Shown piece after piece: positions 27,110-59,543 of a stretch of DNA of 64,000 nucleotides (positions within the stretch are counted from its first letter, which is position 1; each line of letters begins with the position of its first letter). Where the stretch lies: contig CM071570.1 of NCBI GenBank assembly GCA_036426205.1, forward strand, positions 73,749,763-73,813,762, in the 5' to 3' direction. Position numbers and translations under genes: made by a program. The notes beneath the pieces were generated by a model. It was not told the DNA's origin. It saw nothing but the letters and a program-made list of their open reading frames with translations, and made no database searches. The stretch is from Ascaphus truei (Eukaryota > Chordata > Amphibia > Anura > Ascaphidae).

Positions 27110-28740
27110 TTATTTATTTATAATAACATTTATATAGTGCCCTTATTTTAATAGGAATTTGAAGAGGGAACATTGTTGGATGGGTAGCCAGTGGAGTTGG
27201 AAAAGGAGAGGGGTGGCATGGGCAGAGCATGGTAGATTGAGGGCTGCAACGTTTTGGATTTCTTGGAGGGGTATGGAGGAGTAGAGGGTGAGACCGAAGA
27301 GCAGTGAGTTACGGTAGTCGAGATGGGTGAAGATGAGGGAGTGGATGAGAAGTTTGGCCGAGAAGAAGGAAATGGGTGAACTTATTTTTCTTATGTTATA
27401 TAGGTGGTAGTGACAGGTGGTAATGCTGGAGGTGATGGAGGTGATGTGTTTGGCGAAGAGGAGGAAAGGGTCAAGGATGACTCTAAGTTTGCAAGAAGAG
27501 GGGGAGGGGAAGATGGTGAGGGGGGAAAGGAGATGGTGGGGATTGTGGATAACGGGAGGGAGGAGGAAGCAGGAAAGTTGAGAACTTCAGTCTTAGCTGG
27601 AATAATTTGTAGGAAGTGGAAAGACATCCCACTATAAATGACAGAAAAGCAGGTAGAGATACGGATGGAAAGTTTGGGTGAGAATAGTGGGAAGGAGAAG
27701 TAGATTTGGATGTTGTCTGCGAACAAATGAACATTGAATCCATAGGAGGAGATCAGGTAAAAGAGGGGGGCAGTGTAGAGGAAAAAGAGGAGAGGACCAA
27801 GGATGGAGTCTTGGGGCAGGCCAACTTGGAGATTGGTGGGTGGAGAGGATGAATTGTTGAAGGTGACGGGGTAGGAGCGGTGGAAGAGGTAGGATGAGGG
27901 CCATGAGAGGGCGGTTCTGTGATGCCAAGGTTGGTGAGGGTGGAGATGAGAGTGGGGTGACCGATGGTGTCAAAGGTTGAGGAGGATGAGGATGGAGGAG
28001 AGTTTGGAGTGGCACACTTAGGAGAGAAAGTTGTGAATGGTGAGGAGGACAGTTTGAGTAAAGTGAGGGATGGAAGATAGACTGGACAATGTGAAAGAGG
28101 GAATGGGTGTGGATGATGCGCGTGTGGCGTTTGGAGAAGTATGGAAGGAGTGAGATAGGGAAAACGTTGGAGGGGAAGGCAGGGTAGAAAATATGTTTCT
28201 TGTGAGGAGAGGGATGACAACAGCAGTTTTAAATGACTCTGGGTATTGTCCGCTGGATATGGAAAGGTTGAAGGAGGAGAGATAGGGGAGGATGAGTGGG
28301 AGGAAAGAAGGGATGAGGGATCACAGAATGGGGTTAGAAGGGGATTTGGGGGGAGATGGGAGCTTTAGATGATTGAGAGGAGATCATCATCAGAAGTATG
28401 GGCAGAATGAGGGAAGGAGTGGGCAGGGGGTGGTGGATGGTGGGGGGGGGGAGAGCTCCGCAGTGGGGAGGGAAGCTCAGGTGATCATTTTTTGTGTTAA
28501 GTAGAAGGTGAGGACTGTTGCTGAGAGGGGGAGGCGGGGCATAGGTCAGAGAGATAGGGAGGGTCATAGCAGATTGTTTAGGGCGGAGAACAGTTGGCGA
28601 GGATGAGGTGATAAGATTGTTATAGTATATTTGTTTTTGCGATTTGAGATTGGAGACGTATTGAAGGAGGAGTGAATGGAAGGTGGTGAGTGAAGATGTG
28701 GAACGGAAACATTTCCATGATCTTTCGACAGTGAAAAAAA
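27110..28740 (-). pseudogene. L2-like LINE, inactive
   Basis: On the minus strand a degraded reverse transcriptase is recognisable. It has a GLPQDSILGPLLFLLYTAPL segment (about 27800) followed by an HLFADNIQIYFSFP segment (about 27740-27700). The catalytic box reads FADN rather than the required aspartate pair, so the enzyme would be dead even without the frameshifts. The 3' end near 27110 carries a TTTA-type microsatellite and a TTATATAGTGC tail, the style of L2-group LINEs. Upstream, the coding strand is extremely C/T-rich. It is flanked by the roughly 38-bp direct repeat described at 27021. The first part (28255-28740) is duplicated, inverted, in palindrome P1. Confidence 0.7.
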
Positions 28741-28796
28741 AAAAAACACGTGGTATTACATCTTGAGCTCATTGGTGGATTTAAAAAAGAGGAGAG

Positions 28797-28970
28797 TGGG
28801 GGTGTGTGCCGAGCATGCGCGTTTTAAGTGAAACAACTTTGTGTTTTGTCTCTTAAATTGTAATTATACGTTCAAAGGTCTTTTATTCAATCAAAAACAA
28901 AATACAATTTCAGTGACAAAACTGAAAGATGTTTGACTTAGAACGTGCGTGCTCGGCACACACCCCGTTT
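28797..28970. mobile_element. MITE with GGGTGTGTGCCGAGC ends
   Basis: GGGGTGTGTGCCGAGCATGC at the left and GTGCTCGGCACACACCCC at the right are inverted ends. The inverted repeat continues inwards for about 75 bp to a small loop containing TTTTATTCAATCAAAAAC. The mirrored copy is at about 31350-31520. The flanks are A/T runs, so the target duplication cannot be defined. Confidence 0.8.
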
Positions 28971-29133
28971 TTTTTTAATACCTTTCAAGCTCAAGTGATG
29001 AGAGAATAAAAGGAGAGTCCTTAAAAACAAAACAACTAAAATAATAAGAATGTTTTTTGGGAGGACAGTGCATGTTTGCATGAGATGTATATTTTTTGTC
29101 TAATTTAGTAGCTTTATTTTCTGACATATTGTA

Positions 29134-29386
29134 ATATTTATTTCATTGGTTATACATTGTTATTGTTTCTGTTTAATATATAAATGGAGCTGCAGTATTC
29201 AAGCCTATCTGTTTTATGGGGCTGGACACTTCTGACCATGTGCAGGTGATGCAGGATGCTTCTGCGTAGGCCGCTTCTGCGTATGCGCAGGGGTGTGCTG
29301 GTGGCACTGGTGCTTTTTGCGCATGCGCAGTAGATGTCAGATTACCCAGCGGGGGCTCACGTGCTTGTGCACGTGTCTTACATCAC
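29134..29386 (+). mobile_element. Interspersed repeat S, copy 1
   Basis: This is about 250 bp, from ATATTTATTTCATTGGTTAT to GTGTCTTACATCAC. It is shared in the same orientation with 47124-47414 and inverted in the inner arms at about 30930-31190 and 44105-44395. It is GC-rich in the middle, with several TTCTGCGCATGCGCAG-type units that match the NRF-1 palindrome. Because both copies interrupt retroviral pol sequence at different places, it is an inserted repeat and not an LTR. Confidence 0.65.
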
Positions 29387-30060
29387 TTCCATTTCACATT
29401 TTCGTCTCCATGAAGGAGTGTTGTCCCATCAAAATTTACTGGGTGCCACTAAAGAAGTTTCACTTCAAAAATGTTTGCAATTTGGCAGTTGTGAAAAGAT
29501 TGCGCTTGTGTCCCACTGGACAATACAATATATGAAATACATATTAGGGGGGCAGGACATTATTTTAAGATCACATCACAATATCCTCTTGTATACACAT
29601 AGTGGCGTTATGCAATGTCAGAAGTAAGAGACTAGTGAGATGGATGGTTACACTGCTCACGAACAATATCACAGTGGAAGAGTTACAAGAACCGCACATT
29701 TCAGTGCTAAGATTGTTGATTTCTCATGCAGTACATGAATGCCAGCCCACATTGCAGCCTGTGAAACATCCAATGTATCATGAGGGAAGTCAGGCTGATG
29801 TGACAAGTGAGCCTTCTTGGTACAGTATATTGTTGCAAGCTCATCTTTTGTGGATGGTACGGGAATGATTGGCGTTGCAGGATTGTCTGAAAAAAAAAAC
29901 ACTTGGACAGTTTTTCTTATTCTTGTAAGATTGCAGGTGATCAGTTTTCAGAAGCATCTACTCTGCTAACATTTCCACGTGCCAAGATACGTAATGGTGG
30001 ATGCCATTTGTTTATAACTGATTCATGTATGTGTTCAAAAGGTGCAGTTACTGATGCAGC
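29387..30060 (+). pseudogene. pol: Endogenous retrovirus pol: end of reverse transcriptase and first part of RNase H
   Basis: Forward frames here resemble a retroviral polymerase. A segment around 29440-29640 matches the thumb/connection region (SHHNILLY ... RLVRWM spacing at about 29570-29650). After a run of shifts, the RNase H start follows around 29900-30060, with a TDS...GAVTD-type pattern at 30018-30056, where the second catalytic aspartate region lies in this family. Several stops and frameshifts make it inactive. The frame breaks exactly where the palindromic MITE begins (30050). The rest of RNase H is not on the other side at 30283; it is found at 45860 onwards, after the second copy of the MITE. 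Confidence 0.7.
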
Positions 30061-30283
30061 CACGAGTATCCGAACACTTGCCTTTGAAAATCTGGGGCAA
30101 TCTCCCAGTAATGCTGGAACATTTCTGTGACATTTCTGCAGACAGACTAATGGCCCATCGGATTAACACAGCCGGGGTCCCTGGCAGTCCCATTCAAACT
30201 GCCAGCATTACTGGGAGATTGCCCCAGATTTTCAAAGGCAAGTGTTCGGGGTGTTTCTGGCATACTCGTGGGCTGCATCAGTA
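30050..30283. mobile_element. Palindromic MITE M at the centre of P1
   Basis: Both ends read TACTGATGCAGCC inwards, then ACTTGCCTTTGAAAATCTGG and CAATCTCCCAGTAATGCTGG. The loop of about 84 bp contains AATGGCCCATCGGATTAACA. The right side has a small extra insert (GGTGTTTCTGGC near 30250-30262). The loop is the exact reverse complement of that at 45635-45856, so both are the same original copy. It interrupts retroviral RNase H. Confidence 0.9.
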
Positions 30284-32056
30284 ACTGCACCTTTTGAACA
30301 CATACATGAATCAGTTATAAACAAATGGCATCCACCATTACGTATCTTGGCACGTGGAAATGTTAGCAGAGTAGATGCTTCTGAAAACTGATCACCTGCA
30401 ATCTTACAAGAATAAGAAAAACTGTCCAATGTTTTTTTTTTTCAGACAATCCTGCAACGCCAATCATTCCCGTACCATCCACAAAAGATAGCTTGCAACA
30501 ATATACTGTACCAAGAAGGCTCACTTGTCACATCAGCCTGACTTCCCTCATGATACATTGGATGTTTCACAGGCTGCAATGTGGGCTGGCATTCATGTAC
30601 TGCATGAGAAATCAACAATCTTAGCACTGAAATGTGCGGTTCTTGTAACTCTTCCACTGTGATATTGTTCGTGAGCAGTGTAACCATCCATCTCACTAGT
30701 CTCTTACTTCTGACATTGCATAACGCCACTATGTGTATACAAGAGGATATTGTGATGTGATCTTAAAATAATGTCCTGCCCCCCTAATATGTATTTCATA
30801 TATTGTATTGTCCAGTGGGACACAAGCGCAATCTTTTCACACTGCCAAATTGCAAACATTTTGAAGTGAAACTTCTTTAGTGGCACCCAGTAAATTTTGA
30901 TGGGACACACTCCTTCATGAGACGAAAATGTGAAATGGAAGTGATGTGACACGTGCCAAGCACTGAGCCCCCGCTGGGTAATCTGACATCTACTGCGCAT
31001 GCGCAAAAAGCACCAGTGCCACCAGCACACCCCTGCGATACGCAGAACGGCCTACGCAGAAGCATCCTGCATCACCTGCACATGGTCAGAAGTGTCCAGC
31101 CCCATAAACAGATAGGCTTGAATACTGCGCGCTCCATTTATATATAAAACAGAAACATAACAATGTATAACCAATGAAATAAATATTACAATATGTCGAA
31201 AATAAGCTACTAAATTAGACAAAAATATACATCTCATGCAAACATGCACTGTCCTCCCAAAAACACATTCTTATTTTTTTAGTTGTTTTGTTTTTAAGGA
31301 CTCTCCTTTTATTCTCTCATCACTTGAGCTTGAAAGGTATTAAAAAAAACGGGGTGTGTGCCGAGCACCACGTTCTAAGTCAAACATCTTTCAGTTTTGT
31401 CACTGAAATTGTATTTTGTTTTTGATTGAATAAAGACCTTTGAACGTATAATTACAATTTAAGAGACAACACAAAGTTGTTTCACTTAAAACGCGCATGC
31501 TCGGCACACACCCCCACTCTCCTCTTTTTAAATCCACCAATGAGCTCAAGATGTAATACCACGTGTTTTTTTTTTTTTCACTGTCGAAAGATCATGGAAA
31601 TGTTTCCGTTCCACATCTTCACTCACCACCTTCCATTCACTCCTCCTTCAATACGTCCCAATCTCAAATCGCAAAAACAAATATACTATAACAATCTATA
31701 TCACTCATCCTCGCCAACTGTTCTCCCGCCCTAAACAATCTGCTATGACCCTCCCTATCTCTCTGACCTATGCCCCGCCGCCTCCCCTCTCAGCAACAGT
31801 CCTCACCTTCTACTTACACAAAAATGATCACCTGAGCTTCCCTCCCCACTGCGGAGCTCTCCCCCCCCCCCACCATCCACCACCCCCTGCCCACTCCTTC
31901 CCTCATTCTGCCCATACTTCTGATGATGATCTCCTCTCAATCATCTAAAGCTCCCATCTCCCCCAAACCCCCTTCTAACCCCATTCTGTGATCCCTCATC
32001 CCTTCTTTCCTCCACTCATCCTCCCCCTATCTCTCCTCCTTCAACCTTCCATATCC
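30167..32056. repeat. Inner arm L' of P1 (inverted, noisier copy of 28255-30166)
   Basis: All content mirrors the left arm: RNase H and reverse transcriptase remnants on the minus strand (about 30270-30900), repeat S (about 30930-31190), the MITE (about 31350-31520) and the LINE start (about 31560-32056, plus strand). Positions add to about 60,311-60,333 with their partners. No independent genes are listed here because the frames are duplicates. Confidence 0.9.
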
Positions 32057-32070
32057 AGTCGGATAACAAA
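32057..32070. other. Junction between palindromes P1 and P2
   Basis: About 14 bases separate the last base shared with 28255 from the first base shared with 59449. Read on the complement, this joins the right end of the outer segment (59449) to its left end (28255), as expected of a head-to-tail junction of a 15.6-kb unit. Some of the 14 bases resemble the natural sequence just left of 28255, so the exact breakpoint is soft. Confidence 0.8.
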
Positions 32071-32129
32071 GGGCGGGGGAGTGGAGGTTTGACAGGGAGG
32101 GGGGCGTGGCTTGAGCGGAGGGACCCGTA

Positions 32130-32380
32130 CTCTCCCCCCCCACCCTTCCAGGATCGGGCTGGAGCTGCTGATTGGTAAGCAACACACACAACACACATAC
32201 ACACAACACATACACACAACCAACACACAGACAGACGGCAGGCACTCAGCACCAGGCACACACATACACACACACAGACAGACATCACGCACTCAGACAC
32301 ATACACACACACAGACGCACACAATCGACCAACCAGACAGGCACGCACCCACTCAGACACACACAGACAGGCCGCTGCTT
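32130..32380. repeat. CA/TG microsatellite in R'
   Basis: Mirror of 59140-59345, with (CA)n interrupted by GACAGACGG-type units. The open frames here in several registers are microsatellite read-through. Confidence 0.85.
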
Positions 32381-35300
32381 TCACTCCACACTCCTCCCGC
32401 CCCCGAAGCCTCTCTCTCACGAAGGCATCCCACTCCCATTGGCTCACAGCCACACCACGTTTGACCGTCAACGCTAGGGATCACCATTTTGTTGGGTCCA
32501 TAGCGGCTGAAGCCGCACAACAGCGTGTAGTAGTGCGCTGTGCGCAGGGGTGACGGGACCGGCTCGGAGGATTCCCCTGCTGGTGGTGAACTAGAGTGTG
32601 GCCGCCGGCCAACGAGAGCGCAGCGGGAACGAGGCCGTTACCGTAGTAATATCAGGATTCACTGTAGCTGCGAGTTACCACTACGGAAAGATGATTGGAA
32701 CTGAAAGCGGCCATTTGTACAGATTATAACAGGAGCACCAAAGGCATTACCAGCTTAGGTAAGAATATAGAACATTATCACTGCTTTACATATAAAAATA
32801 ATAAGGAAAAATGTTTCAGAAAAGTAGTATGCCTGCTAATTCCGCTGTTGCATAAGCCGAGGGAGAAGGTAAAGTTACATTTCCATTTGTGGACTAAAGG
32901 CATAAATTACTCAGCAATATGCAGATAAAAGGTAACAGTAAGGTTCTAGGTTGACCAAAAGATGTGAATTAAGTCCTGCTCTGCCACAACTGTGTGTTAA
33001 GTAAACATCGATTTGTGCCAATTTTAGATTTATAATATGATGAGATCTGCTACTTTGTTCTCTCAGCTCAAATCTTCACCAGCTCTTTAATGACCAGTTA
33101 AAGTTTCTTTGACAGTTATCTTATTATAATGACCATGTGTGTATAACTCTCTTTAAAAGTGCAATTCCCGCATAGTCGGCCATGATTTCTCCCTGCTCTG
33201 ATGGGGAGGGTTTGCAATCAAGTGTTTTCTTTTACCCTTATCAGAGAGTAATACAGACAAGGGGAATTGTGGCCTGCACAAGCACTTGAACCACACAGTG
33301 ACATTACACAGAGGGCAGGACATTAAACCACTTCCAAGTCTAACTTAAACAATTTATAAAAAAAACCTACTTATAGGTGTCAGATTTGGGTAAAAAAATG
33401 TGTAAATTACCAGATGAAGACCTCGTATCAAGTGTCACTGGAATTAGTTTACTGTGGTCCATAAGAGGGATGTAAAGCGACCTCATGTTATTTACAATTC
33501 AAATTCAAATCCCACATTCACACAATTTTATTTAAATAAGAAAAGCAATTAAATATTTTCATTTTTGAAGCGAAACACTCACGAAGGATACAGTAATTTA
33601 TGAAAAATCACTTGGCTAGCACCCTTTCTCGTAAACGAATCTAAAGTTATTCAAATGGAACTTTCAACTAAAGTCCTGCAGTTCGATTTTTTTAAACCCA
33701 TGAACCTGCACGACTAACCGAAAGACCAATGCTCCTGGACTGCGAATAAAAAATCTATTTCACTTCTTTAACAAGCTTTTTAAAAATTGTGTAAAGGATC
33801 TAAAAGGGGTTTTGAATATATGCAAAACTAGGGACGGGTGAGTTGCAGGGCCAAAAGGATAATCAATGACAGATATTTACCTTCATAAAAAAAAACAGAC
33901 CAAAACCCAATGAATTTAGACAACACCAGAACCGCCGAAAACCGATACCCTTACCCCCCAAAAAAAATGTAGAAAGAAACAAAAGGATACACAGGATTCC
34001 AGTGAGCATTGGATTTGGGACTAAACTGATCTCATGGGTTATAGTGTTGAAGTTAACCAGACATGCAGATGGTATATTTTATTAGGTTGGGCAGATTTAT
34101 AAAGCACTGTCAAAGCAATTCCCAGGCATTTGTTTTCATAATAACCATTATACAGTATAACTTTCATTAAACAGGAAATTGAGCCTGGAATCCAGATAAC
34201 CTGTAAATGTAAATATTATACCTCAGTTTGAAAATGAGTTCCAGAATTAATGGTACCGTTTATGCAAATTAATAAAAAGAATGTCAGTACTGAAAACCTA
34301 TAGAAGCATCATTTACTTACGGCAAAATCCACTCATCTGAATGAAATCAATATAAACATGCAGTCTGCTTCATTTAGCCTTTTCTTATCCCTTACAGTGA
34401 ATTAAGAAGGAGAACATGCGGACTAATTTTAAGATTAAGCAGTAGAAAATGAAAACATATGTTTCAGACATCTTATATTTAGTCAAACGGGATATTTACT
34501 AATCATTCTCTCGGTAACCCACAGAAATATTTAGGAAGCGAATTTCTCATGCACAAAACAATGTGTATATTCATTCATTCCTAGCAAAAATTACTGGAGA
34601 GGTATTTAATTTGTGTTTCCCTTAGCATATGGGACTCATGTTGTCATATGAGTTTCAGTAAAAGTGTTGGTTACCAGCTTTGAGACAGAACCTTAAAGCA
34701 GTAAAAAATGCCACAATATGTACAACAAATTCTTTGACACAAAATATCGTGATCTATCCTGATTGATCATTTCCCAACTACAACACAATGGCCAATCATT
34801 TGATTAACTTTGACTAAATATTTTGTATTAAATTCTCTATATACATCTGTCAACAATACAAATATGCATTTTACTGTTGTTGTTTTAGCTTGTAAAGGTT
34901 CTTACTGATTTAACTATATTGATAAAGAAAATGAGAACCAAGAAATACGTGAAAACTTATAGTGTTAGATATATTATATATATATATGACAGTATATATA
35001 TAGATATATAATATATAGATATATATGATACGTTATATATATGATATATAAAATAGAAGAAGAAAAAGCACCCAATCCTAGTGCATTACGGTGCAAAAAT
35101 TGTGTAATTCCCAATAAAAGCTCATAAATGAACTCACAAACATAAAGGAATAAAAAAAGCATTGTATGAGTGATACTCATGCTCCAAAAGATCTGAAGCG
35201 CTGTGCTATGCTACTCTGACTCCGTGACTCCAACCGCATCCAGTACAGCCCTCGTTGTATCTCTGCCAGCAGGGAAAACTTCACGGTCTTCAGGTCACAC

Positions 35301-38300
35301 AGTATCTCTTTCCCCGGGGAACACACCTCCAAGATAGTCAGGTTCCCACTGGGGACAATGTGTGCGGCGCGAACGAAACAGAGACGTCACGCCGTGCACG
35401 GAGATGACAGGCCACAGGCAGGAGAAGGAGAATGTCAAGCAGAACTAGTAAATCAACGTGAGGGGATCCACAGCACCAACTGGCCCTACGCTTTCAACAG
35501 CTAAACGTTTCATCAGGGGATAACGATACACGAGGGCTTGTACTGGATGCGGTGGAGGCACGGAGCAGAGTAGCAGAGCAGCAGCGCTTCCAGATCCGTA
35601 TTTTGAGGCATGAGTATAACTAATACATTTTTTATCATTATGTTTGTGAGTTATTTTATGAGCCTTGTATGGGAAGTAAACGTGATTTTTTGCACAGTAT
35701 GCACATAGGATTGGGCTCTTTTTTCTTCTATTTTCTATGCAGGTTGGAGAGAGGGAGGTCGTTGTTGCCCTTTAAAGAAGCAGCCATTTTCCTGTCAGTG
35801 CTTTTCTGTTCCTTGAATTTTTTGGACTTCATTTGGACTCCAGAGGATTTATGACAAGGGTTGTTTATGGTCCACAGCACATCTTTTATAACTATTGGCA
35901 TTGGTGCACAGTTGATGACCCAGTTAAATACTATTAGTGTGATAGAGGGTTTAATACATTTTATACATTTTCTGAAATTTATTTGTAGTGTTATTATTGC
36001 TCTTCACACTAGACCCAGACGCAGTCCTTTATGTATATATATAATATATATATAATAATATGGTTATGTAAACTCTAATATGTATCGCCAACACTTCTTG
36101 TGAAAAACATTTTTCGAATAAAACATGAAGTAAACAACAAAAAAATAGTACAGGTTTATTTTTTACATTTTGGGTCTAGTAATCAGGACTCTAACGCAGA
36201 CATTAAAAACAATTATTAAAACAATTACTGTAGATTTCTTTTAAAAGGGGATCCTTTAAAAAAAGATGTATACCATTAAAAATGTTACTTCAATGGGTTT
36301 CATTCTGTTAGAGCAGGAGTGGAACCCACTCCAGTCCTTAAGGGCCACCTATATTTTTTTATATTGTGGATATTGTCTATGTTTTTTTTTCAGATATCCC
36401 TGCTTCAGCACCGTGGGCTTCAATCAGTGGCTCAGTCAAAGGGACGGAGTTGGTTACCCCTTGTGTTTAGAAATTACTATTTCAGCCTTTCAACTTTGAA
36501 GGGTTCAGTAATGTGACAGTAATGGGGCAGATAAAGCCAGGGAATTTCGTCTTTGATTATTTATTGTTTAAGTTAGCCAAATAAAGTATTTTAAGACCAA
36601 CCTTTTACTGAAAAATAATTTTGGTTCCGGCATGGCGCATCGCCTTAAGATGACAACCCGTCATGGCGCAATGCAGCGTCACATTGTCATGTAACGTGAT
36701 GCTGTGGCGCCCATGACAACGGAACGTGCAGTGGGAGGTTGCCACCGGGACAATGGAAGAGACAGTACGAGGCCCGCGCTCTTCCCCGGAAATTAGTTTC
36801 ATTGTTGTGGTGAAGCGCGCCGGCCCTGGACACGAGTCCCGGTGCAGATCGGCAGTGGTGACGATGGCACGGCCATCAAAAGTTCTTCCCCAGGGACATA
36901 AAAAAAGGCGTCAATCTCCTGCGTTATGCAGACCAGTAGGGAGCCATATCTCACTGCTTCCTATTGTTTTGCCTGACGACAGGGATATGTAAATCGAGTG
37001 AAGTACAGCGTTGGTTTTACGTGTACGGGAAGTAACTAGGGAACCAGGGAGTCCAGGAGCTTGAAATTAATGGGTTAAGCTCGGCAAAACCCCTTATTTC
37101 CACCCATGTAAAACGTGAGAGTAGGGCGGAACTGCGCCTTGAAAATAACTGCAGACTAAAAGACTCATATCATGGGGATTACGTTTTTGACTTGCCAAGG
37201 GCAGGGTTCCCAAACTTTTTAAAATGTGTACGCCCTGCTAGAAAAGGTTTGTTTTCTGCGAACCTAGTTAATAAATCTTATTGCCTACTCATCAGATTAT
37301 TGACTCACCAAAAAACAGTTTGGCCCATCCCAGGCAAGGATAGTGTCCGGAGCCCTTGGTGACAAATCATAGTGAGCGAGAAGAATGGGGGTTATAGCTA
37401 TCAATCAAAATGCTTTGCGCTGGCATGTGGGGAGCGGACTTTGGAAACTCCTGCTGTTAAGTGGCTGATAGACGGGAAACTAAACTAAGTTTTCAACCAC
37501 CACCACCCTACACAGGTAGGTGACTTAAGTGCAGTTCGGTGCGCACCCCTCACGCCCCCGCCCTCTCCCCAAGATCAGGAGTCACTATAGGGCTGGGATA
37601 ATTACAGATTTTTTGGGGGAAACCCTTTGGAGACACATCACGCACCTAGGGTTTCCCAATCCCCTGTTGGGAATCATTTGTTAAGGAAAATTGTGATAAT
37701 ATGTTTACATTGCTGCCCTTTGGTGATGAGTTCTTGGTCGGATTGTTTACACAAACAGGGGTTTGTAAGTTAGGATGTGCAAATCATAGGTGTTTATCCC
37801 ATATTACTCATCATGTTGTTAGGTTGTGAGATGGCATACACTCCTCAAGTCTACAGATTTGGGGTGCACTTAGAGCTGGATTATTGCAATGAACATTAGC
37901 ATTCCAAGATGTCGTTTAGAAACTTTGGTATAGAGGTTTCTTGACTAAATGCACTGCTGCAAATAGTTTTATCTAAATATGCAGGACTATTTAAGGGGGG
38001 GGGGGTCGAGCAGTGAGCAGTAAAGTAGAAATGCTGGGGACACAGAGAAGACAGCTTTGATTACAAGAGAAGTACCCGATTATTGTATATCGTGAGAGGG
38101 CAAAAATAAGGGACACCAGAGAAAGTAAAGAGCCAAAAGCAACTGTAAGGAAAGCATTGGGTGTCAAGGCAGAGGATTAATTTGTAGCTATACAAAAATA
38201 AATGGAAGTCAATAAGAAGGTACAAAGACAATCTAGACAGCAGAGTTGTCCCCCCCCCAAAGAAGATAACTAAGTAACATTTAGTTTATGTGAGAAAAGA

Positions 38301-46480: not shown

Positions 46481-46488
46481 CTTTAAGA

Positions 46489-48529: not shown

Positions 48530-48650
48530 CCACCACTGCAGCAAGGGATTCTGGGAAATGACATGCAAATGAGCACTCAGTGCCACCTTTTGTCTCAAGC
48601 TCATATTACATTAGCCAATCCTCAAGCCAATGCTTGTTAATATTATCCTA
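48530..48650. mobile_element. Fragment of the CTGCAGCAAGGGATTCTGGG repeat
   Basis: The CTGCAGCAAGGGATTCTGGG AAATGACATGCAAATGAGCAC stretch also occurs at 51595-51640 (with slight differences) and in the mirrored positions 39.95 and 42.96 kb. It is a dispersed frog repeat of unknown class. Confidence 0.6.
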
Positions 48651-48660
48651 TAAGGACTGA

Positions 48661-49310: not shown

Positions 49311-50170
49311 CATGTACAGGAGTCCCCTTTTGAAAATTGAGCACCTGTTCAAATTAAAGTAGCTACAGTACCCCAATATTTGGAGCCAGGGTTGTGTAAT
49401 ATGAACTGGTGACAGGGGTTACTAAACCTACAGGATTGTTGGTTGCATCTACATATCACAACTACACCACATACACCTCATTTCAGGCAACATCTTTGCA
49501 AGATTGGTTCATACGGTATTTGGAATGCCCGCACACATAGCACATAGATCAAGAAGGGATACTACGGTGACTGTATAAGGAATAGCAATTACGGGCATAA
49601 CAAGTGTGATGAATTCTATAGGTGCTGAAATCCTAAAGCCAACCAATTATTCTGATGTGTTGCTACTTGGTGTACAAGTGTATCAATTTGGTCTACTGTA
49701 TCTTGTACATTACAGATGCAGCCACCAGTATCCGATGACTTGCCTTGGAAAATCTGGGGCAATCTCCCAGTAAACTGCAACATTTCTGTGAGATTTCTGC
49801 AGCCAGACTAATGGCCCATCGGATTAACACAGTGGGGGGGTGGGGGGGTGGTCCCTGCAGTCCCTGAAGTCCCATTCAAACAGAATGTGACTGCAGGGAC
49901 CTCCGCTGTGTTAATCCAATGGGCCATTAGTTTGGCTGCAGAATCTCACAGAGATGTTGCAGCATTTACTGTGAGATAGCCACACTATTTCCCCAGGCAA
50001 ATCTTCGGATACTGGTGCCTGCATCTGCACCTCACATTGAAAATTTGTCCCTTGATATTTTGTGGTCTACATTTATCATGGATTGAAATATTTCTGCCTT
50101 GCAACTGGGAATGACAGAATATTTAAGGATTGGTTAATTTATTTTGATGCTACTGTTTAACTGGAAAGAA
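49311..50170 (+). pseudogene. Probable rest of env, split by an M-family MITE
   Basis: Short forward frames with stops continue on both sides of the MITE at 49711-50028. This could be the transmembrane part of env, but no fusion peptide or disulphide motif can be identified. No 3' LTR or polypurine tract was found. Confidence 0.3.
49711..50028. mobile_element. MITE of the M family, inserted in the env-like region
   Basis: Ends TACAGATGCAGCCACCAG and GGTGCCTGCATCTG. Contains AATGGCCCATCGGATTAAC and AATCCAATGGGCCATTAG in inverted arrangement around a G run (about 49833-49851). The arms are about 150 bp. Confidence 0.85.
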
Positions 50171-51156
50171 AGTGGCAGGGCATACTGTAGCCAACACTGT
50201 TAACAATTTACATGATAGTACTAAGATCACACATATCATATATGAATTACACATCGATGCCCAATTATCATTGTTTGTCTTTTTGGCATTAGTTCAACCG
50301 CACATGCTATTTTCGATCTGCTTATTCATCCTATTATTTTGATTGTTTTAACTGAAGTTATTTTGATCTTTTAATTGGTATACATTGTTTGCCATGGTAA
50401 GAAAATGTTGACTCAACTTAATCTCCTGTCCACAAAAACAAAAATAGGGTGAGTGTTCTGTCTGTATTAATGCTAGTTAATGTGTTGATGCAATTTGATC
50501 ACCATAAGAGGTACTGTGAGGTAACTGAAGAATGAAGAGTTAATGGATTCATGGACATTCTGATTTCTGTGTACATTAAGGCTGTGTACAATTGTCACTG
50601 GGCAAAGGGAGTTGGTTCCCTTGACATAGGTCAATGAATGAAGACCTTTATTTGTACTCATCAGAGTACTTGTCTTACAAATGCTTTTTAATAGATCGGC
50701 GTGTTTGAAATGAGATTATAAAGGGTCACCTATCACAATGGGCTGAGTATGGACACTGTTGAGATGGTTGAATTGTATTGACATTTAAGTATGTATGTGA
50801 TGGGTGCGCGAAAGTTAACAACTTGATTTTATTATTATCATCATCATTGCCACATGACAGAAAATAAAAATAAATGGGCATATGTAGATAAGAGAGTTGA
50901 CTGAGCGCATAATGAATATCTCCTTTACAATATATATATATATAAGACATGCAGATGAGCATACAGTTATATTTGCATATATATATATATATATATATAT
51001 TCCAGAAAGTGGTCTGCTTCGAAGAACTGCTAGGGCAGTGCAGAACCCTTTGATAACCTCAGTGTGGAACTCGCAGAGCTATCATGATCTTCAAAGTAGT
51101 TCTGTTCAATTCTTCTGCAAAAGGCAACAATGATGATACATATTTATATATATATA
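50171..51156. other. Unassigned sequence with TA microsatellites
   Basis: AT-rich; (TA)n runs at about 50930-50942 and 50977-51001. No gene. The mirrored region is 40.4-41.4 kb. Confidence 0.4.
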
Positions 51157-51345
51157 TACAGTGGTGTGAAAAAGAAAGTACACCCTCTTTGAATTCCATG
51201 GTTTTACATATCAGGACATAATAACAATCATCTGTTCCTTAGCAGGTCTTAAAATTAGGTAAATACAACCTCAGATGAACAACAACACATGACATATTAC
51301 ATTGTGTCGTGATTTATTTAACAAAAATTAAGCCAAAATGGAGAA
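51157..51345 (+). mobile_element. Tc1/mariner-like element fragment
   Basis: TACAGTGGTGTGAAAAAGAA is the terminal sequence of a well-known Tc1-like MITE in fish and frogs. The following bases (GTACACCCTCTTTGAATTCC ... AGCAGGTCTTAAAATTAGG ... CAAAATGGAGAAGCCAT) keep the family order. The insertion abuts a TA microsatellite, as expected for TA target preference. The right-hand end is missing. The mirrored fragment near 40200-40400 has many small deletions. Confidence 0.8.
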
Positions 51346-53210
51346 GCCATCTTTTTTCTTTGTGTTTTTATATTTCATCGGTCCTTTAGCATCACCAGAG
51401 GGAATTTTGTATCCCCTACTTCTGGCTTTTGTGATTTAAATTATAGATATAAACAGGTGATTTGATTGCGGCACTAATTGTGTGTTTGTTTTATATATCA
51501 ATCAAATAAAAAGATCACTTGTGAGCATATTTACATGTCTTAGACAGGTCTGCAACCCTGCCTTTCACCATTATCACTTGGCATAGTGATTCCACTGCAG
51601 CAAGGGAATCTGGGAAATTACATGCAAATGAGCACACTGTGTCACTTTTTGCCTAAAATCCATATAAGCTAATGCTCGCTGTTAACACAGCTTTTAAGCA
51701 CAGCATGGGAATCAGATGCAAAGCCAAAGAAACCATTCACAGGCATGTTTCAAATCGTAATGGGTATCATCAGTGTGAAGTTGGTTGTACTGCTGGCTTT
51801 GCATTTTCAAGGCTGTAGGATTTATCATCACATTTTAAGTTATGGTGGGTGAAAAAGGCAACAAGAAACCTCCACCGTCTTGCATATAGCAACATAAAGA
51901 CATTGTTTTACCTCTTATTTCACCTAGGAAAGTCTAGATTTGTAGCCCAGACCCTCAGTTAATGTGTTTTCTTCTGTATTTTGTAACCCACTGTGTGTGC
52001 GTCTGTTTCTATGGAATAAATGACAAATTTGTTTTACTAACTTGTTTTGCTCAGTGAATGATCCCGGTAAAAATGTGTTTTTTTTAGAATTTGTAAACAT
52101 TTTTTTACACAATTTGCTTCCCTTTAAGTTATTATGTTCTTTTTAAGTGAATCCAATTTACATTCTATTTTAATTCTGGATACCTTCCTGAAATTGAGCA
52201 GAGTTATGTTCTGATTAGTGATAGGGCTTTTATGCTGTCTGTCCATTCATAAAGGAAGAGGCTTGTGTAATACATTTTTGGAGACAGGGTTTAAGTGTTT
52301 TGAAGTGCTTGTTTTAAAAAAATTGTTGTAGGAAAGGATCATCAAGTCATATTCACTTAACTTGATGTTCGACCTACAGTATACCGAGTCTTCTTTAAGT
52401 GAGCTGTGGTCTGGGTACAAGTGTAAAGGTAATAAAAAGTTGGATTAGTTATTGTAACATTTTTGCACAGTTTCCTACAAAAGCCCTCAAGGTATTCTGT
52501 TCTCTATCAATCACCTCACATGAACAATACCTGCTAGACTCTCTATACATGATTCTCCACATGTTGTCTACCTTGTATTAGCTGTTGACGGCATTTCATG
52601 GGATGACATCACTGTTCCCATGGAAACCTCAGTGGCAGAACAAAGAGCGTCACTGATAGAGTAGCACCTTGTTCTACAACTGTGCAGAGCAGGATACATT
52701 AACATTTTACATTGAAACTGATACATAATGCAGCAACTTGGGAGTACATGTTATATCAAAAACAGATTTCAATTACATTGTGCCACCAAGTTTTGTTTCA
52801 ATTAGCGTTAATGGCACAAACCAAACATATGGGATCTGTCAAAAATAAATTTAACAACCCCTTCCAATGAACCCGGGTTCTGATAAATCATTTAACATGG
52901 GCTAATCCACACTCCACTGTCTCCTTGTAAAAGAGACATTAATTCTGCACAAGCCTTTAAATTCCATGTCATCATAGGAGCTTTGTAAAAGTAATTTTTA
53001 ATTCTGCGTACTTCAACAGTACCTAATTTCCCAGTCAGATGTGATTGCCTGTTATTAATGCAGGGTTTCTTCCTCCTCGTCTTTGATATAAAAAAATATA
53101 ATCTGCTCTTTTTTTCCCCTCTGTCACTCATGCTCTTATTCTCTCTCGTCTTGATTAATGTAACATTCTTCTAGCTGGACTTAATGCATGTCCTTTTTCC
53201 CCTTGAGAAA
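51346..53210. other. Mostly unassigned, one dispersed repeat at 51530-51830
   Basis: Around 51540-51830 lies a repeat with GACAGGTCTGCAACCCTGCC and AAGCACAGCATGGGAATCAG; pieces recur at 48530 and perhaps 20810. The remainder, mirrored at 38.3-40.1 kb, has no recognised content. Confidence 0.4.
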
Positions 53211-53212
53211 GG

Positions 53213-53265
53213 GGAGCAAAGGTTGAACTTGATGGACATATGTCTTTTCTCAACATAAACTAAAT
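53213..53265 (+). mobile_element. CR1 3' tail fragment
   Basis: GGTTGAACTTGATGGACATA TGTCTTTTCTCAAC matches the end of the CR1 copy at 8690-8725. It is a severely 5'-truncated insertion. The mirror on the minus strand is at about 38290-38335. Confidence 0.75.
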
Positions 53266-53851
53266 GTTACTTAGGTTATCTTCTTTTTACAACTCTGCTG
53301 CTAGATTGTCTTTGTACCTTCTTATTGACTTCCATTTATTTTTGTATTAGCTACAAATTATCCTCCTGTCCTTTGGACACCAAATGCTTTCCTTAAAGTT
53401 GCCTTTTGGCTCTTTACTTCTCTGGTGTCCTTATATGTTTGCCCTCATCACTATATACAATATCGGTACTTCTCTTGTAATCAAAGCTGTCTTCTCTGTG
53501 TCCCAAGCATTTCTACTGCTCGACCCCCCCCCCTTAAATAGTCCTGCATATTTTAGATAAAACTATTTGCAGCAAGTGCATTTATTCAAGACCTCTATTA
53601 CCAAAGTTTATAAAAGAAATCTTGGAATGCTACATTTTCATTGCAATAATAAGCTATAAGGCACCCGACAATCTGTAGACTTGAATGGAGTGTATGCCAT
53701 CTCACAACCTAACAACAATGAGTAAATATGGGATAAACACCTATGATTTGCACAATCTAACTTACAACCCATCTGTTTGTGTAACAAAGCAGACCAATAA
53801 ACTATCACCAAAAGGGCAGCAATGTAAACATAATTATCACAAGATTTCCTT

Positions 53852-54340
53852 AGACAAATGATTCCCAACAAGGGGATTGGGAACCCCTAGGGGTGCGTGA
53901 TGTGTCTCCAAAGGGTTTCCCCCCAAAAAATCTGTAATTAATCCCAGGCACTATAGTGGACTCCTGAGTCTGGGGGGAGAGGGCGGGGGCGGGAGGGTGC
54001 GCACCGAACTGCACCTTAAGGTCACCGAACTGTGTAGGTGGTGGTAGGTTGAAACGTAGTTAGTTTCCGTCTATCAGCCAATTACAGCAGGAGTTTCCAA
54101 AGTCGCTCCCCACAATGCCAGCGGCAAAGCATTTTGATTGATAGCTATACCCCGCATGCTATCTGCGCTCACTATGATGTGTTCCCCAAGGGCTCAGGAC
54201 ACTATCCTGCCTGGGATGGGCCAAACTGTTTTGTGAGCAATAATCTGATGAGTAGGCAATAAGATTTATTAACTAGGGGTTCGCAGAACAAACATTTTCT
54301 AGCAGGGCGTACACAATGTTAAAAAGTTTGGGAACCACTG
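53852..54340. mobile_element. hAT element, about 490 bp
   Basis: The right end AAAAAGTTTGGGAACCACTG is the classic hAT terminus. The left end near AATGATTCCCAACAAGGGG is its imperfect inverse. Flanking TCCTTAGA and CCCTTGGG may be a decayed 8-bp duplication. The mirrored copy is at 37200-37690. Confidence 0.75.
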
Positions 54341-54429
54341 CCCTTGGGCAAGTCAACGTAATCCCCATGATATGAGTCTTTTAGTCTGCAGTTATATTTC
54401 AAGGCGCAGTTCACCCCTACCTAGCACTT

Positions 54430-54920
54430 TTTACATGGGTGGAAAGAAGGGGTTTGCCAGAGCTGAACCCCATTAATTTCAGCTCCGGGACTCCCTGGTT
54501 CCCTAGTTACTTACCGTACACGTAAAACAAACGCTGGTACTTCACTCGATTTAAATCCCTGTCGTCAGGCAAAACAATAGGAAGCAGTGAGAGATGGCTC
54601 CCTACTGGTCTGCATAACGCAGGAGATTGAAGCCTTTATTTTATTTCCCCTGGAGGAGACTTGATGGCAGTGCCATCGGCACCACTGCCGATCTGCACCG
54701 GGACTCGTGGTCACAGGGGCCAGGCGCTCTTCACCACAACAATGAAACTAATTTCCGGGGGAAGAGCGCGGGCCTCTGTAACTGTCTCTTCCATTGTCCG
54801 GTGGCAACTCCCACTGCAGCGTTCCGTTGTCATGGCGCCACAGCATCACGTTACCATGACAATGTGACGCTGCATTGCGCCATGACGGGGTGTCATCTGA
54901 GGCGATGCAGCCATGCCGGA
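54430..54920. mobile_element. GC-rich MITE cluster
   Basis: Blocks shared with other elements: a GGGTTTGCCAGAGCTGAA unit (as in 25.7 and 24.65 kb), then AGAGCGCGGGCCTCTGTAA with its near complement (as in 408-760). A GTCATGGCG ... CCATGAC palindromic stretch follows at 54828-54890. Two or more MITEs probably overlap here. Mirrored at 36600-37100. Confidence 0.5.
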
Positions 54921-55084
54921 CAAAATATTTTCAGTAAAAGGTTGGTCTTTAAAATACTTATATTTGGCTAACTTAAAACAATAAATAAATCAAAAGACGA
55001 AAGTCACCTGGCTTTAATCTGCCCATTACTGTCACATTACTGAACCTTCAAAGTTGAAGGCTGAAATAGGTAATTTCTAAAACA

Positions 55085-55205
55085 CAGGGGTAACCAACTC
55101 CAGTCCTTTGACTGAGCCACTGATTGAGCCACCTGTGCTGAAGCAGGGATATCCTGAAAACCTGAACTGTTGGTGGCCCTTGAGGACTGGAGTGGTCCAC
55201 TCCTG
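55085..55205. mobile_element. hAT-like MITE, CAGGGG...CTCCTG
   Basis: CAGGGGTAACCAACTCCAGT at the left and ACTGGAGTGGTCCACTCCTG at the right are inverted ends. CTAAAACA/CTCTAACA flank it. Inner GGCTCAATCAGTGGCTCAG-type sequence links it to 12786-12984. Confidence 0.7.
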
Positions 55206-55447
55206 CTCTAACAGATGAAACCATTGGAAGTAACATGTTTAATGGGATACATCTTTTTTAAAGATACCCTTTTAAAAGATCTACAGTATTGTTTTAATAA
55301 TTTTTTAATGTCTGCGTATAGAGTCTGATTACATAGACAAAAATGTAAAAAAATAAACTGTTACATATTTTTTGTTGTTTACTCATGTTTATTCGAAAAA
55401 TGTTTTCACAAGAAGGTGTTGGAGATACATATGTAGAGTTTACATAA

Positions 55448-55448
55448 C

Positions 55449-55482
<34 letters not shown>
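55448..55482. repeat. TA microsatellite
   Basis: About 15 TA units. The shorter mirror is near 36038-36055. Confidence 0.9.
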
Positions 55483-55782
55483 TAAAGGACTGCGCTTGGG
55501 TATAGTGTGACAGCAATAATAACAATACAATAATAAATTATCAGAAAATGTATAAATGTATATAAAAACCTATATAACAATAATAGTATTTAACTGTGCA
55601 ATCAACTGTGCACCAAATGCATAAATAGTTATAAAAAGATGTGCTGTGGACCCAATAACAAACCTTGTCATAAATCCTCTGGAGTCCAAATGAAGTCCAA
55701 AAAATTCAAGGAACAGAAAAGCACTGACAGGAAAATGGCTGCTTCTTTAAAGGGCACAACGACCTCCCTCTCCACCTGCATA

Positions 55783-56446
55783 GAAAATAGAAGAAAAAAG
55801 AGCCCAATCCTAGTGCATTACTGTGCAAAAAATAGTTTAATTCCCAATAAAAGGCTCATAAAATGAACTCACAAACATAAAGGATAAAAAAGCATTGTAT
55901 GAGTTATACTCATGCTCCAAAGGATCTGGAAGCGCTGCTGCTCTGCTACTCTGCTCCGTGACTCCACCGCATCCAGTACAGCCCTCGTGTATCGTGTATC
56001 CCCTGATGAAAACAGTTTAGCTGTTGAAACGCGTAGGGCCAGGTGTGCTGTGGATCCCCTCAGCGTTGATTTACGAGTTCTGCTTGACATTCTCCTGCCT
56101 GTCATCTCCGTGCACGGCGTGACGTCATCTGTTCGTTCCGCCGCACACATTGTCCCCAGTGGGAACCTAGACTATCTGGAGGTGTGTTCCCGGGGAAAGA
56201 ATACTGTGATGAGCCTGATGACGTGAGTTCCTGCTGGCAGAGATACACGAGGGCTGTACTGGATGCGGTGGAGTCACGGAGCAGAGTAGCAGAGCAGCAG
56301 CGCTTCCAGATCTTTTGGAGCATGAGTATAACTCATACAATGCTTTTTTTATCCTTTATGTTTGTGAGTTCATTTTATGAGCCTTTTATTGGGAATTAAA
56401 CAATTTTTTGCACAGTAATGCACTAGGATTGGGTGCTTTTTTCTTC

Positions 56447-56452
<6 letters not shown>
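55783..56452. mobile_element. Foldback element with 215-bp inverted ends
   Basis: The left arm (TAGAAAATAGAAGAAAAAAG ... ATCCAGTACAGCCCTCGTGT, to about 55995) is mirrored by the right arm (about 56240-56452). The spacer of about 240 bp contains the hammerhead-like core and GTGCACGGCGTGACGTCA. A long TA microsatellite follows (56452-56520). The mirror in R' is about 35050-35760. No coding capacity. Confidence 0.8.
56003..56038 (+). other. Hammerhead-like core motif, site 3
   Basis: A perfect CTGATGA at 56003-56009, one A, a 5-bp stem AACAG/CTGTT (56011-56015 and 56021-56025) with loop TTTAG, then GAAACGCGTAGGG from 56026. This is the best match to the hammerhead order CUGAUGA - stem II - GAAA - stem III. 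The extra A and the lack of an obvious stem I partner are weaknesses. Confidence 0.35.
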
Positions 56453-56490
<38 letters not shown>

Positions 56491-56530
56491 TATATATATA
56501 TATACTGTATATAGCTATATTATATATATA
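56452..56530. repeat. TA microsatellite
   Basis: (TA)n with a few interruptions. The mirror is at 34970-35050. Confidence 0.92.
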
Positions 56531-58660
56531 ACACTATAAGGTTTCAAAGGATTTCTTGGTTTCTCATTTTCTTTATCAATAATAGTTAAATCAGTAAGAA
56601 CTTTACAAAGCTAAAAAAACAACATTTAAAATGCAGAATATTGATTGTTGACAGATTGTAATATAAGATAATTTAATACAAAATATTTAGTCAAAAGTTA
56701 ATCAAATGTATTGCATTGTGTTGTAGTTGGGAAAAATGATAAAATCAGGATAAGATCAAGATATTTTGTGTCAAAAGAATTTGTTGTACATATTGTGGCA
56801 TTTTTTAATGCTTTAAGGTTCTGTATCAAAGCTGTAACCACACTTTTACTGAAACTCATATGACAACATGAGTACCATATGCATAAGGGAAACACAAAAT
56901 TAAATACCTCTGCCAGTATTTTGCTAGGAATGAATGAAATATACACATTTGTTTGTGCATGAGAAATTCGCTTCCTAAATATTTCTGTGGTTACCGATAG
57001 AATGATTAGTAAAATATCCACGTTTGAACTAAATATAAGATGTCTGAGAACAGATGTTTTCATTTTCTACTGCTTAATCTTTAAAATGAGTCACTGCATG
57101 TTCCCTTCCTTACATTCAACTGTAAGGGATAAGAGAAGGCTAAATGAAGCAGGAACTGCATGTTATATTGATTTCATTCAGATGAGTGGATTTGCACGTA
57201 AAGTAAATGATGCTTCTATAGTTTTCAGTACATGACATTCCTTTTTATTAATTGGCATAAACGTAACCATTAATTCTGGAACTCATTTTCAAAATGAGGT
57301 ATAATATTTACAGGTATCTGGATTCCAGGCTCAATTTCCTGTCTTAATGAAAGTTATACTGTATATGGTTATTATTAAAAACAAATGCCTGGGATTTGCT
57401 TTGGACAGTGCTTTATAAATCTGCCCAAACTAATTAAAATATACCATCTGCATGTCTGGTAATAACTCAACACTATACACCATGAGATCAGTTAGTCCAA
57501 ATCACAGATGCTCACTGGATCCTGTGTTACCTTTGTTTCTACATTTTTTTGGGGGGTAAAGGGTATCGGTTTCGGTTCTGGTGTTGTCTAAATTCCATTG
57601 GTTTTGGTTCTGTTTTTTTTATTATGGTAGAATATCTGAATTTTATCCTTTTGCCCTGCAAAACTCACCCGTCACTAGTTTGCATATATTCAAAACCACT
57701 TTTAGATCCTTTACAATGTTTTAAGCTTTTTAAGTGAAATATATTTTTTAATTCGCAGTCAGTAAGCAGTGGTCTTTAGTTAGTACGTGCAGGTTCATGG
57801 GTTTGAAATCTGAACTGCAGGAACTTTAGTTTGAAAGTTCCAGTTGAATAAACTTTAGATTCGTTTACAGGAAAGGGTGCTATGCCAAGTGTATTTTCAT
57901 AAATAGCTGTATCTTCGTGAGTGTTTTCGCTTCAAAAAATGAAAATATTTAATTGCTTTTCTTATTTAAATAAAATTGTGTGATGTGGGAATGTTGAATT
58001 GAATTGTAAAATAACATGCAGGTACGCTTTAAATACCTCTTAGGACCAAAGTAAACTAATTCCAGTGACATGGATACGAGGTCTTATCTGGGTAATTTAC
58101 ACATTTTTTTACCCAAATCTGACACCTATAAGTATTTTTTTTATAAATGTGTTAAAGTTAGACTTGGAAGTGGTTTAATGTCCTGCCTCTTGTGTAATGT
58201 CACTGTGTGTTCAGCAAGTGCTTGTGCAGCCACAATTCCCCTTGTCTGTATTTACTCTCTGATAAGGGTAAAGAAAACACTTGATTGACAAACACCTCCC
58301 CATTCAGAGCAGGGGAGAAAATCAAATGGCCGACTATGCGGGATTGCACTTTTAAAGAGAGTTATACACACATGGTCATTATATAAGATAACTGTAAAGA
58401 AACTTTAACTGTAAGGAAAGAGCTGGTGAAGATTTGAGCTGAGAGAAAAGTAGAAGATATCATCATAATTATAATCTAAATTGGCACAAATAGATGTTTA
58501 CTTAACAACACAGTGGTGGCAGAGGCAGGAACTTAATTCACAATCTTTTGTAAACCTAGAACCTTAACTGTTACATTTTATCTGCATATTGCTGAGTTAA
58601 TTTATGCCTTTAGTGCCACAAATGAAATGTACTTTACCTGCTCCCTCGGCTTATGCAACA
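56531..58660. other. Single-copy-like sequence, possible conserved noncoding DNA
   Basis: No repeat family or coding exon recognised. Apart from its mirror at 32.85-34.95 kb, I see no other copy in the window. The even composition and absence of MITE ends make it the best place in the right arm to look for conserved intronic elements. Confidence 0.35.
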
Positions 58661-58874
58661 GCTGAATTAAAGCAGCAATACTACTTTTCTTGAAACATTT
58701 TTCCTTTATTATTTTTATATGTAAAGCATGTGACAATGTTCTATATTCTTACCTAAGCTGGTAATCCTTTGGTGCTCCTGTTATAAATCTGTACAAATGG
58801 CCGCTTTCAGTTCCAATCAATCTTTCAGTCAGTGTAACTCAGCAGCTACAGTGAATCCTGATATTACTACGGTA

Positions 58875-59543
58875 CGGCCTCGGTCCCGCTGCGCTCGTTG
58901 GCGCGGGCGGCCACACGCGAGTTCCCCACCAGCAGGGGAATCCTCCCGAGCCGGTCCCGGTCACCCCTGGCGGCACAGCGCACTACACGCTGTGGCGCGT
59001 CAGCCGCTATGGGACACAACAAAATGGTGATCCCTAGCGTTGACGCGTCACGTGGTGTGGCTGTGAGCCAATGGGGAGGGGAGGCTTCGGGAGGAGGAGA
59101 GGCTTCGGGGAGCGGGGAGGAGTGTGGAGTGAAAGCAGCGTGCCTGTCTGTGTGTGTCTGAGTGGGTGCGTGCCTGTCTGTGTGTGTCTGAGTGGGTGCG
59201 TGTCTGTGTGTGTGTATGTGTCTGAGTGCGTGAGTGTCTGTCTGTGTGTGTGTATGTGTGTGCCTGAGTGCGTGAGTGCCTGCCTCTGTCTGTGTGTGTG
59301 TGTGTGTGTATGTGTGTGTGTATGTGTGTGTGTGTGTTGCTTACCATCAGCAGCTCCAGCCCGAGTCCGTGGAGGGTGGGGGGGGAGAGTAGCGGGTCCC
59401 TCCGCTCAAGCCACGCCCCCCCTCCCTGTCAAACCTCCCACTCCCGCCCACCTCCCGCTCCCTACAGACCGCATATCGCGGTCTGTGTATGTCAGCGCAC
59501 CACCTGTCTGCAGTGAAGGCGCGCTGACTCTGGGAGCGGGGCC
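58875..59543. mobile_element. Harbinger-type MITE with internal TG microsatellite
   Basis: The ends CGGCCTCGGTCCCGCTGCGC and GGGAGCGGGGCC are GC-rich and inverted, with GTA/TTA next to them. The inside holds a TG/CTGAGTG microsatellite (59140-59345). Family resemblance to 13982-14304 is in the GGCC ends and CpG richness. Confidence 0.6.
59140..59345 (+). repeat. TG microsatellite with GTGCCTGTC units
   Basis: Interrupted (TG)n with repeated GAGTGGGTGCGTG units. It explains the open frames here in all registers. Confidence 0.92.

What the first reader, a model, noticed from the sequence alone, without database searches (positions are those of the whole stretch)
28255..59449. Two abutting giant palindromes share one central MITE: the true locus is probably 15.6 kb shorter
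P1 (28255-32056) and P2 (32071-59449) are both centred on the same palindromic MITE; their 84-bp loops are exact reverse complements. The MITE's outer bases are TACTGATG on both sides of P1 but TACAGATG on both sides of P2, so each palindrome has doubled one flank. All content of 30167-45745 is explained as inverted L plus inverted R. The order L-M-L'-R'-M-R is what results from a 15.6-kb tandem duplication (unit end 59449 joined to start 28255) whose interior is then flipped between the two self-complementary M copies. The flip can be real recombination, or an assembler walking the loop the wrong way.
Basis: partly seen in the sequence, partly recalled or inferred. Interest (0 to 1): 0.9.

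Follow-up and report, generated by a model that had tools for sequence, protein, structure and literature searches.

The report
False double palindrome at a MITE
Two back-to-back giant palindromes in this genome assembly are most likely a false duplication: long sequencing reads probably folded back at one hairpin-shaped transposon, so about 15.6 kb of noisy, inverted copy sits in the middle of a locus that is likely shorter in the real genome.

Summary
P1 (arms 28249-30117 / 30202-32063) and P2 (arms 32077-45703 / 45788-59445) turn at the same hairpin MITE, and their 84-bp loops are exact reverse complements. The arms are not identical: 749 indel events against 179 mismatches, the reverse of other repeat pairs in this window (124 gaps, 829 mismatches). 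Where third repeat copies could judge, the inner arms carried more indels in 6 of 7 pairings, with one tie. The inner copy has three quality grades. L' and the M-proximal 6 kb of R' look like unpolished long-read consensus. The 7.6 kb from the L'|R' junction to about 39.7 kb looks like a raw long read. The likely explanation: two contig ends, each made of reads that folded back at the MITE, were placed side by side and bridged with raw read sequence, and polishing then went to the better outer copies. Its tandem-duplication-plus-flip is not: one flip leaves both loops in the same orientation, and the observed order needs two. Its collapse point would also splice two half-loops. Reads could not be checked, so a real low-depth rearrangement is not excluded. 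Low interest.

The parts
28249..30117 (+). Outer L arm, including the left arm of the MITE; continuous with the left flank
   Evidence: fewer indel events than L' against both R copies (6 vs 15, 9 vs 15)
30047..30285 (+). MITE copy M1, centre of P1: 71-bp arm, 84-bp loop, second arm with a 12-bp extra stretch (GGTGTTTCTGGC at 30250) and one extra G
30118..30201 (+). Loop of M1
   Evidence: exact reverse complement of 45704-45787
30202..32063 (-). Inner arm L' (inverted copy of L), consensus-grade but unpolished: 5 mismatches, 28 deletion events, 11 insertion events over 1839 aligned bases
32057..32076 (.). L'|R' junction; local alignments to L and R leave only 32067-32070 unassigned
32077..39720 (-). 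Inner arm R', distal part, raw-read grade: 168 mismatches, 294 deletion and 239 insertion events over 7274 aligned bases
39721..45703 (-). Inner arm R', M-proximal part, consensus-grade but unpolished: 6 mismatches, 135 deletion and 42 insertion events over 5904 aligned bases; quality step at about 39.54-39.86 kb
45633..45858 (+). MITE copy M2, centre of P2; equals the reverse complement of M1 apart from the outer bases and the 12-bp and 1-bp extras of M1; 45634-45857 folds to -100.6 kcal/mol as ssDNA, z -20.4
45788..59445 (+). Outer R arm, including the right arm of the MITE; continuous with the right flank
49710..50027 (+). Related full-length hairpin MITE inside R, used as a third copy; its inner counterpart lies at 41540-41852
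   Evidence: 49700-50045 folds to -126.4 kcal/mol, z -21.9

Best explanation
The two abutting palindromes are most likely a false duplication in the assembly, produced by long reads that probably folded back at one hairpin MITE from both sides, so that the true locus would be L-MITE-R and about 15.6 kb shorter. Shown: both palindromes turn in the same MITE, inner and outer copies differ almost only by indels, the excess of indels lies in the inner copies wherever a third copy could decide, and the differences come in three grades, with a raw-read-like grade next to the L'|R' junction. Inferred: a strand ending in the far arm of the MITE snapped back on the near arm and was copied back (or the hairpin closed the molecule). 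This happened once from the L side and once from the R side, and each product became a contig end. Also inferred: the two ends were placed side by side and bridged by about 7.6 kb of raw read, and polishing reads then went to the better outer copies and left the inner copies uncorrected. The outer limits 28255 and 59449 are then only where fold-back sequence stopped and need not be duplication breakpoints.
For: (1) Arm differences are indels: 749 indel events against 179 mismatches (L' 39:5, R' distal 533:168, R' proximal 177:6). In 22 other repeat pairs of this window there are 829 mismatches and 124 gap openings. (2) Third-copy test, indel events inner vs outer: 5 vs 1 (inner aligned over only 111 of about 215 bases), 9 vs 1, 9 vs 6, 15 vs 6, 8 vs 4, 15 vs 9; one pairing, with the noisy L' itself as probe, ties 15 vs 15. 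Inner worse in 6 of 7, never better; the pairings are not all independent. (3) Quality step at 39.54-39.86 kb; L' and proximal R' have 0.27% and 0.10% mismatches, distal R' 2.3% (Fisher p 2e-11 and 1e-35). High indel rates begin in the first bin after the junction. (4) In the consensus-grade parts there are only 11 mismatches over 7743 aligned bases, so there is no sign of age. (5) Opposite loop orientation excludes a single flip and is allowed by two fold-backs. (6) Precedents: fold-back reads at about 0.55-0.6% of ONT gDNA reads (PMC12870357); artificial inverted repeats at 0.18-7.33% in ligation libraries (PMC13141652); inverted duplications in an assembly of amplified DNA attributed to palindromic reads (PMC6218980); one copy left at lower quality because reads align to the better one, with false duplications acting similarly (PMC8081667); false duplications sometimes connected by incorrect gap filling (PMC9516828).
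Against: No reads, depth or second assembly could be examined. A real duplication patched with a raw read could also stay unpolished next to a better copy, so the noise alone is not proof. PMC12870357 defines fold-backs by a turn near the middle of the read; no paper that I saw ties them to a MITE. Why the raw grade starts at the L'|R' junction is not explained in detail, and the first 170 or so bases after the junction show indels but no mismatch. The longest stop-free run is not shorter in the inner arm (185 aa vs 166 aa outer), so that simple test gave no support. A 99.1% inverted repeat with longer arms at 932-1914 shows no such palindrome, so a near-perfect inverted repeat does not by itself produce one.
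Confidence: 0.86

Rival explanations
1. One chimeric read (a variant within the 0.86 of the best explanation): two fold-back products were joined end to end (28255 end to 59449 end), giving a single 20-31 kb read L-M-L'-R'-M-R that the assembler used whole. Still an artefact, but a single molecule.
For: It gives the L'|R' adjacency directly and needs no gap filling; the 15.6-kb span L+R is a plausible fragment size (inference).
Against: L' and proximal R' are of consensus grade while about 32.08-39.7 kb is raw grade, with a sharp step; one read would be expected to be uniform.
Confidence: 0.25
2. A real, recent genomic rearrangement: template switching at the MITE hairpin during replication, twice, copied L and then R backwards and left an inverted 15.6-kb extra copy (comparable in outline to ODIRA or template-switch repair).
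For: Short interrupted inverted repeats seed inverted amplification in yeast through hairpin intermediates (PMC10766183, abstract and passages); the near absence of mismatches would fit a very young event.
Against: About 10% raw-type difference over 7.6 kb suggests that very few reads supported this stretch (inference); 15.5 kb at germline copy number would be expected to be assembled like its flanks.
Confidence: 0.08
3. One reading: 15.6-kb tandem duplication, then the interior inverted by recombination between the two MITE copies.
For: The order L-M-L'-R'-M-R fits at the block level.
Against: None of the four single inversions gives the observed opposite loop orientation; two are needed. Error asymmetry as above.
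Confidence: 0.02
4. Pure assembly-graph error: a short-k graph walked through the self-complementary MITE arms and re-used the L and R sequence in reverse, with no fold-back molecule.
For: A graph with a 70-bp self-complementary arm allows the walk L-a-l-a'-L' and R'-a-l'-a'-R (inference).
Against: Re-used graph sequence would be expected to equal the outer arms; the two copies instead differ by 749 indel events.
Confidence: 0.04

Closest known systems
Fold-back (palindromic) long-read artefacts (PMC12870357, PMC13141652, PMC6218980)
   Same: A stretch followed at once by its own reverse complement; in PMC6218980 such reads are held responsible for inverted duplications in an assembly from amplified DNA.
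   Different: Here both turns lie in a hairpin MITE rather than being defined by the read midpoint, and two of them face each other at one locus; the reads themselves were not seen.
Homotype false duplication in vertebrate assemblies (PMC9516828, PMC8081667)
   Same: Extra copy with read-error-type differences, possibly joined by doubtful gap fill, of lower quality beside a better copy.
   Different: The copies are inverted and share one transposon as pivot; depth could not be measured, and the host was not shown to be a vertebrate.
ODIRA inverted triplication via hairpin-capped DNA (PMC10766183)
   Same: Template switch at a short interrupted inverted repeat yields inverted copies.
   Different: ODIRA has two separate inversion junctions at different inverted repeats and gives a triplication; here one element serves both turns and a 28255|59449 joint would be needed.

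Membership tests
Fold-back read artefact | Sequence followed immediately by its own reverse complement on the other strand | tested here: met
   P1 and P2
Fold-back read artefact | Present in individual reads, not in the genome | not testable with these tools
   no reads held; only the assembly window was available
Homotype false duplication | Copies differ by sequencing-error-type changes, not by biological divergence | tested here: met
   749 indel events: 179 mismatches versus 124 gap openings: 829 mismatches in 22 other repeat pairs
Homotype false duplication | Read depth of the false copy below haploid level | not testable with these tools
Homotype false duplication | Gap or incorrectly filled gap between the copies | tested here: inconclusive
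   Quality step at 39.54-39.86 kb and raw grade next to the junction suggest a filled gap; no N in the window
Tandem duplication with interior inverted between MITE copies | Loop orientations as produced by one inversion between inverted arms | tested here: not met
   0 of 4 single inversions give the observed order; two are needed
MITE (hairpin type) | Short element, terminal inverted repeats, more than one copy | tested here: met
   71-bp arms differing only at the outer bases (outer L vs outer R), related hairpin at 49713-50027; TA flanks seen, superfamily and genome-wide copy number not tested
ODIRA-type rearrangement | Two distinct inverted repeats at the two inversion junctions, triplication | tested here: not met
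   Both turns use the same MITE, and L and R each occur twice in the window, not three times

The most novel reading that the evidence does not exclude
The structure is real: one hairpin MITE acted as a double template-switch site, capping DNA from both sides and leaving a brand-new 15.6-kb inverted duplication, in effect a closed hairpin-ended intermediate put back into the chromosome and caught at low depth (for example in a fraction of cells).
Probability: 0.07. Interest if true: 0.7.

Novelty: not a real feature. Interest (0 to 1): 0.15.

Why it matters
If uncorrected, the locus likely carries a spurious 15.6-kb inverted duplication with indel-ridden copies of L and R, and could be scored as a giant palindrome or a gain. 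The more general lesson is testable: hairpin MITEs with near-identical arms may be places where long reads fold back and contigs end. Such false palindromes could be flagged from sequence alone by one-sided indel noise, quality steps and loop orientation.

Tried and rejected
Tried and without result: the window's own genome could not be searched, so other MITE copies, an allelic contig or similar artefacts elsewhere were not sought. No tRNA and no Rfam match at gathering scores in the window. Of four ORFs sent to Pfam, only the one at 6451-8214 matched (reverse transcriptase); two ORFs of outer R and one of inner R' gave no family at E up to 0.1. By PDB sequence search the ORF at 6451 matches R2 and LINE-1 proteins and the ORF at 47362 nothing at E up to 1. 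The organism was not identified; a LINE-type ORF suggests a eukaryote.

Considered and rejected: old genuine palindrome (mismatch rate near zero in the consensus-grade parts, indel excess); one-step inversion of a tandem duplication; missed SMRTbell adapter (the turn would lie at an insert end, not inside a MITE twice; inference). Stop-free run length as a test of which arm is noisy gave no support (185 aa inner, 166 aa outer). A first change-point estimate of 40.6 kb coincides with one 31-bp TA-repeat insertion and was replaced by the mismatch- and event-based estimates.

Unresolved: whether the true MITE is an internally deleted copy with one 84-bp loop (favoured: the M1 joint contains ACTGCCAG, which also occurs in the opposite half of the element at P2) or a full-length 308-bp hairpin from which each palindrome lost one half. 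The excess is 15,586 bp in the first case and 15,502 bp in the second.

Rows dropped: one search left out pairs under 80 bp, pairs touching 30160-45745, pairs within the VNTR at 11300-11760 and near-duplicate hits; self-hairpins (7 of the 22) count both halves.
Full report
Observation. P1 has arms 28249-30117 and 30202-32063; P2 has arms 32077-45703 and 45788-59445. Both are centred on the same hairpin element (M). Its 84-bp loops, 30118-30201 and 45704-45787, are exact reverse complements. The outermost arm bases are TACTGATG on both sides of P1 and TACAGATG on both sides of P2. A related hairpin lies at 49713-50027; the stretch 49700-50045 folds with z = -21.9. M therefore has at least one relative in the window and looks like a hairpin MITE.

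The arms are not equal. P1 is about 97% identical, and P2 93.7% and 89.6% in BLAST's two pieces. The differences are almost all insertions and deletions: L' has 5 mismatches and 39 indel events; R' from 32077 to 39720 has 168 and 533; R' from 39721 to 45703 has 6 and 177. As a yardstick, 22 other repeat pairs of at least 80 bp in the same window, leaving out pairs that touch the inner arms and pairs within a VNTR, sum to 829 mismatches and 124 gap openings (seven self-hairpins count both halves). The arms therefore do not look like diverged genomic copies.

Which copy is noisy? Dispersed relatives inside L and R serve as third copies. Indel events, outer versus inner: 1 vs 5 (inner aligned over only 111 bases), 1 vs 9, 6 vs 9, 6 vs 15, 9 vs 15 and 4 vs 8. 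One further pairing, with the noisy L' itself as probe, ties at 15 vs 15. The inner copy was worse in 6 of 7 and never better; the pairings share sequences and are not all independent. One simple test did not separate the copies: the longest stop-free run is 166 aa in outer R and 185 aa in inner R'.

Quality grades. Along the inner copy the error type changes sharply. Mismatch rates are 0.27% in L', 2.3% in distal R' and 0.10% in proximal R'. L' and proximal R' do not differ significantly (p 0.15), and both differ from distal R' (p 2e-11, 1e-35). The step lies at 39.54-39.71 kb by mismatches and 39.81-39.86 kb by mismatches plus insertion events. On the other side, the bin that starts at 32077 already has 14 indel bases per 167 matches but no mismatch; mismatches appear from the next bin, so the raw-like grade begins at or close to the L'|R' junction. 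This is the pattern of contig end, raw gap fill, contig start (inference). [quoted passage not shown] A survey of false duplications reports assembly gaps between the copies, and sometimes a connection by incorrect gap filling (PMC9516828, passages read).

Mechanism. In a symbolic enumeration, none of four possible single inversions between inverted arms gives the observed order with opposite loops; two inversions are needed. Fold-back at the MITE from each side gives L-a-l-a'-L' and R'-a-l'-a'-R, with either loop orientation possible (inference). Because the outermost arm bases are L-type on both sides of P1 and R-type on both sides of P2, each turn took place before the last bases of the far arm. 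In P1 the second arm carries a 12-bp extra stretch that resembles a slipped copy of its neighbour and may mark the turn (inference). Fold-back reads are documented at about 0.55-0.6% of ONT gDNA reads and virtually none in PacBio HiFi data (PMC12870357, part 1 of 5 and passages read). Artificial inverted repeats make up 0.18-7.33% of reads in ligation libraries (PMC13141652, passages). Palindromes were found in 0.5% of unamplified and 40-50% of amplified Arabidopsis PacBio reads (PMC6218980, passages).

Limits. Unpolished noise could also persist beside a real young duplication, so the decisive datum, read depth and spanning reads, is missing. An inverted repeat with longer arms at 932-1914 (99.1%) shows no such palindrome, so a near-perfect inverted repeat alone does not suffice. 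Six text searches were made (listings only, apart from the papers named above). Only named MITEs; it listed three papers, none of which by title and start of abstract is about fold-back reads at MITEs. This is no proof of absence.

Verdict. A false duplication is most likely (0.86, of which about 0.25 for a single chimeric read); the excess is 15.5-15.6 kb.

Noticed in passing
932-1914: Inverted repeat with 339-bp arms, 99.1% identical (3 mismatches, no gaps) and a 305-bp spacer. Its arms are longer than those of M, yet no giant palindrome surrounds it.
   Followed up: partly
8969-9819, 12786-12984, 21283-21559, 24448-25051, 25631-26085, 28799-28966, 49713-50027: Seven stretches align to their own reverse complement (68-82% identity): the window holds many long hairpin elements.
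   Followed up: no
6451-8214: 587-aa ORF with a reverse transcriptase domain (Pfam RVT_1, E 1.9e-30) and R2/LINE-1 proteins as closest PDB sequences: a LINE-type retrotransposon ORF.
   Followed up: partly
11343-11753: Tandem repeat with a unit of about 43 bp (self-BLAST offsets).
   Followed up: no
26001-30000: Strong local GC skew (+0.42 and +0.37 in two 2-kb bins), a G-over-C stretch that includes the left limit of P1.
   Followed up: no
40602: A 31-bp TA-rich insertion in the inner R' arm relative to the outer arm (at 50978); could be microsatellite slippage or a real allele.
   Followed up: no
35425, 36365-36390, 38026, 38258, 38430: Other inner-arm insertions of 5-13 bp relative to the outer arm, among others; read noise or allelic differences not resolved.
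   Followed up: no
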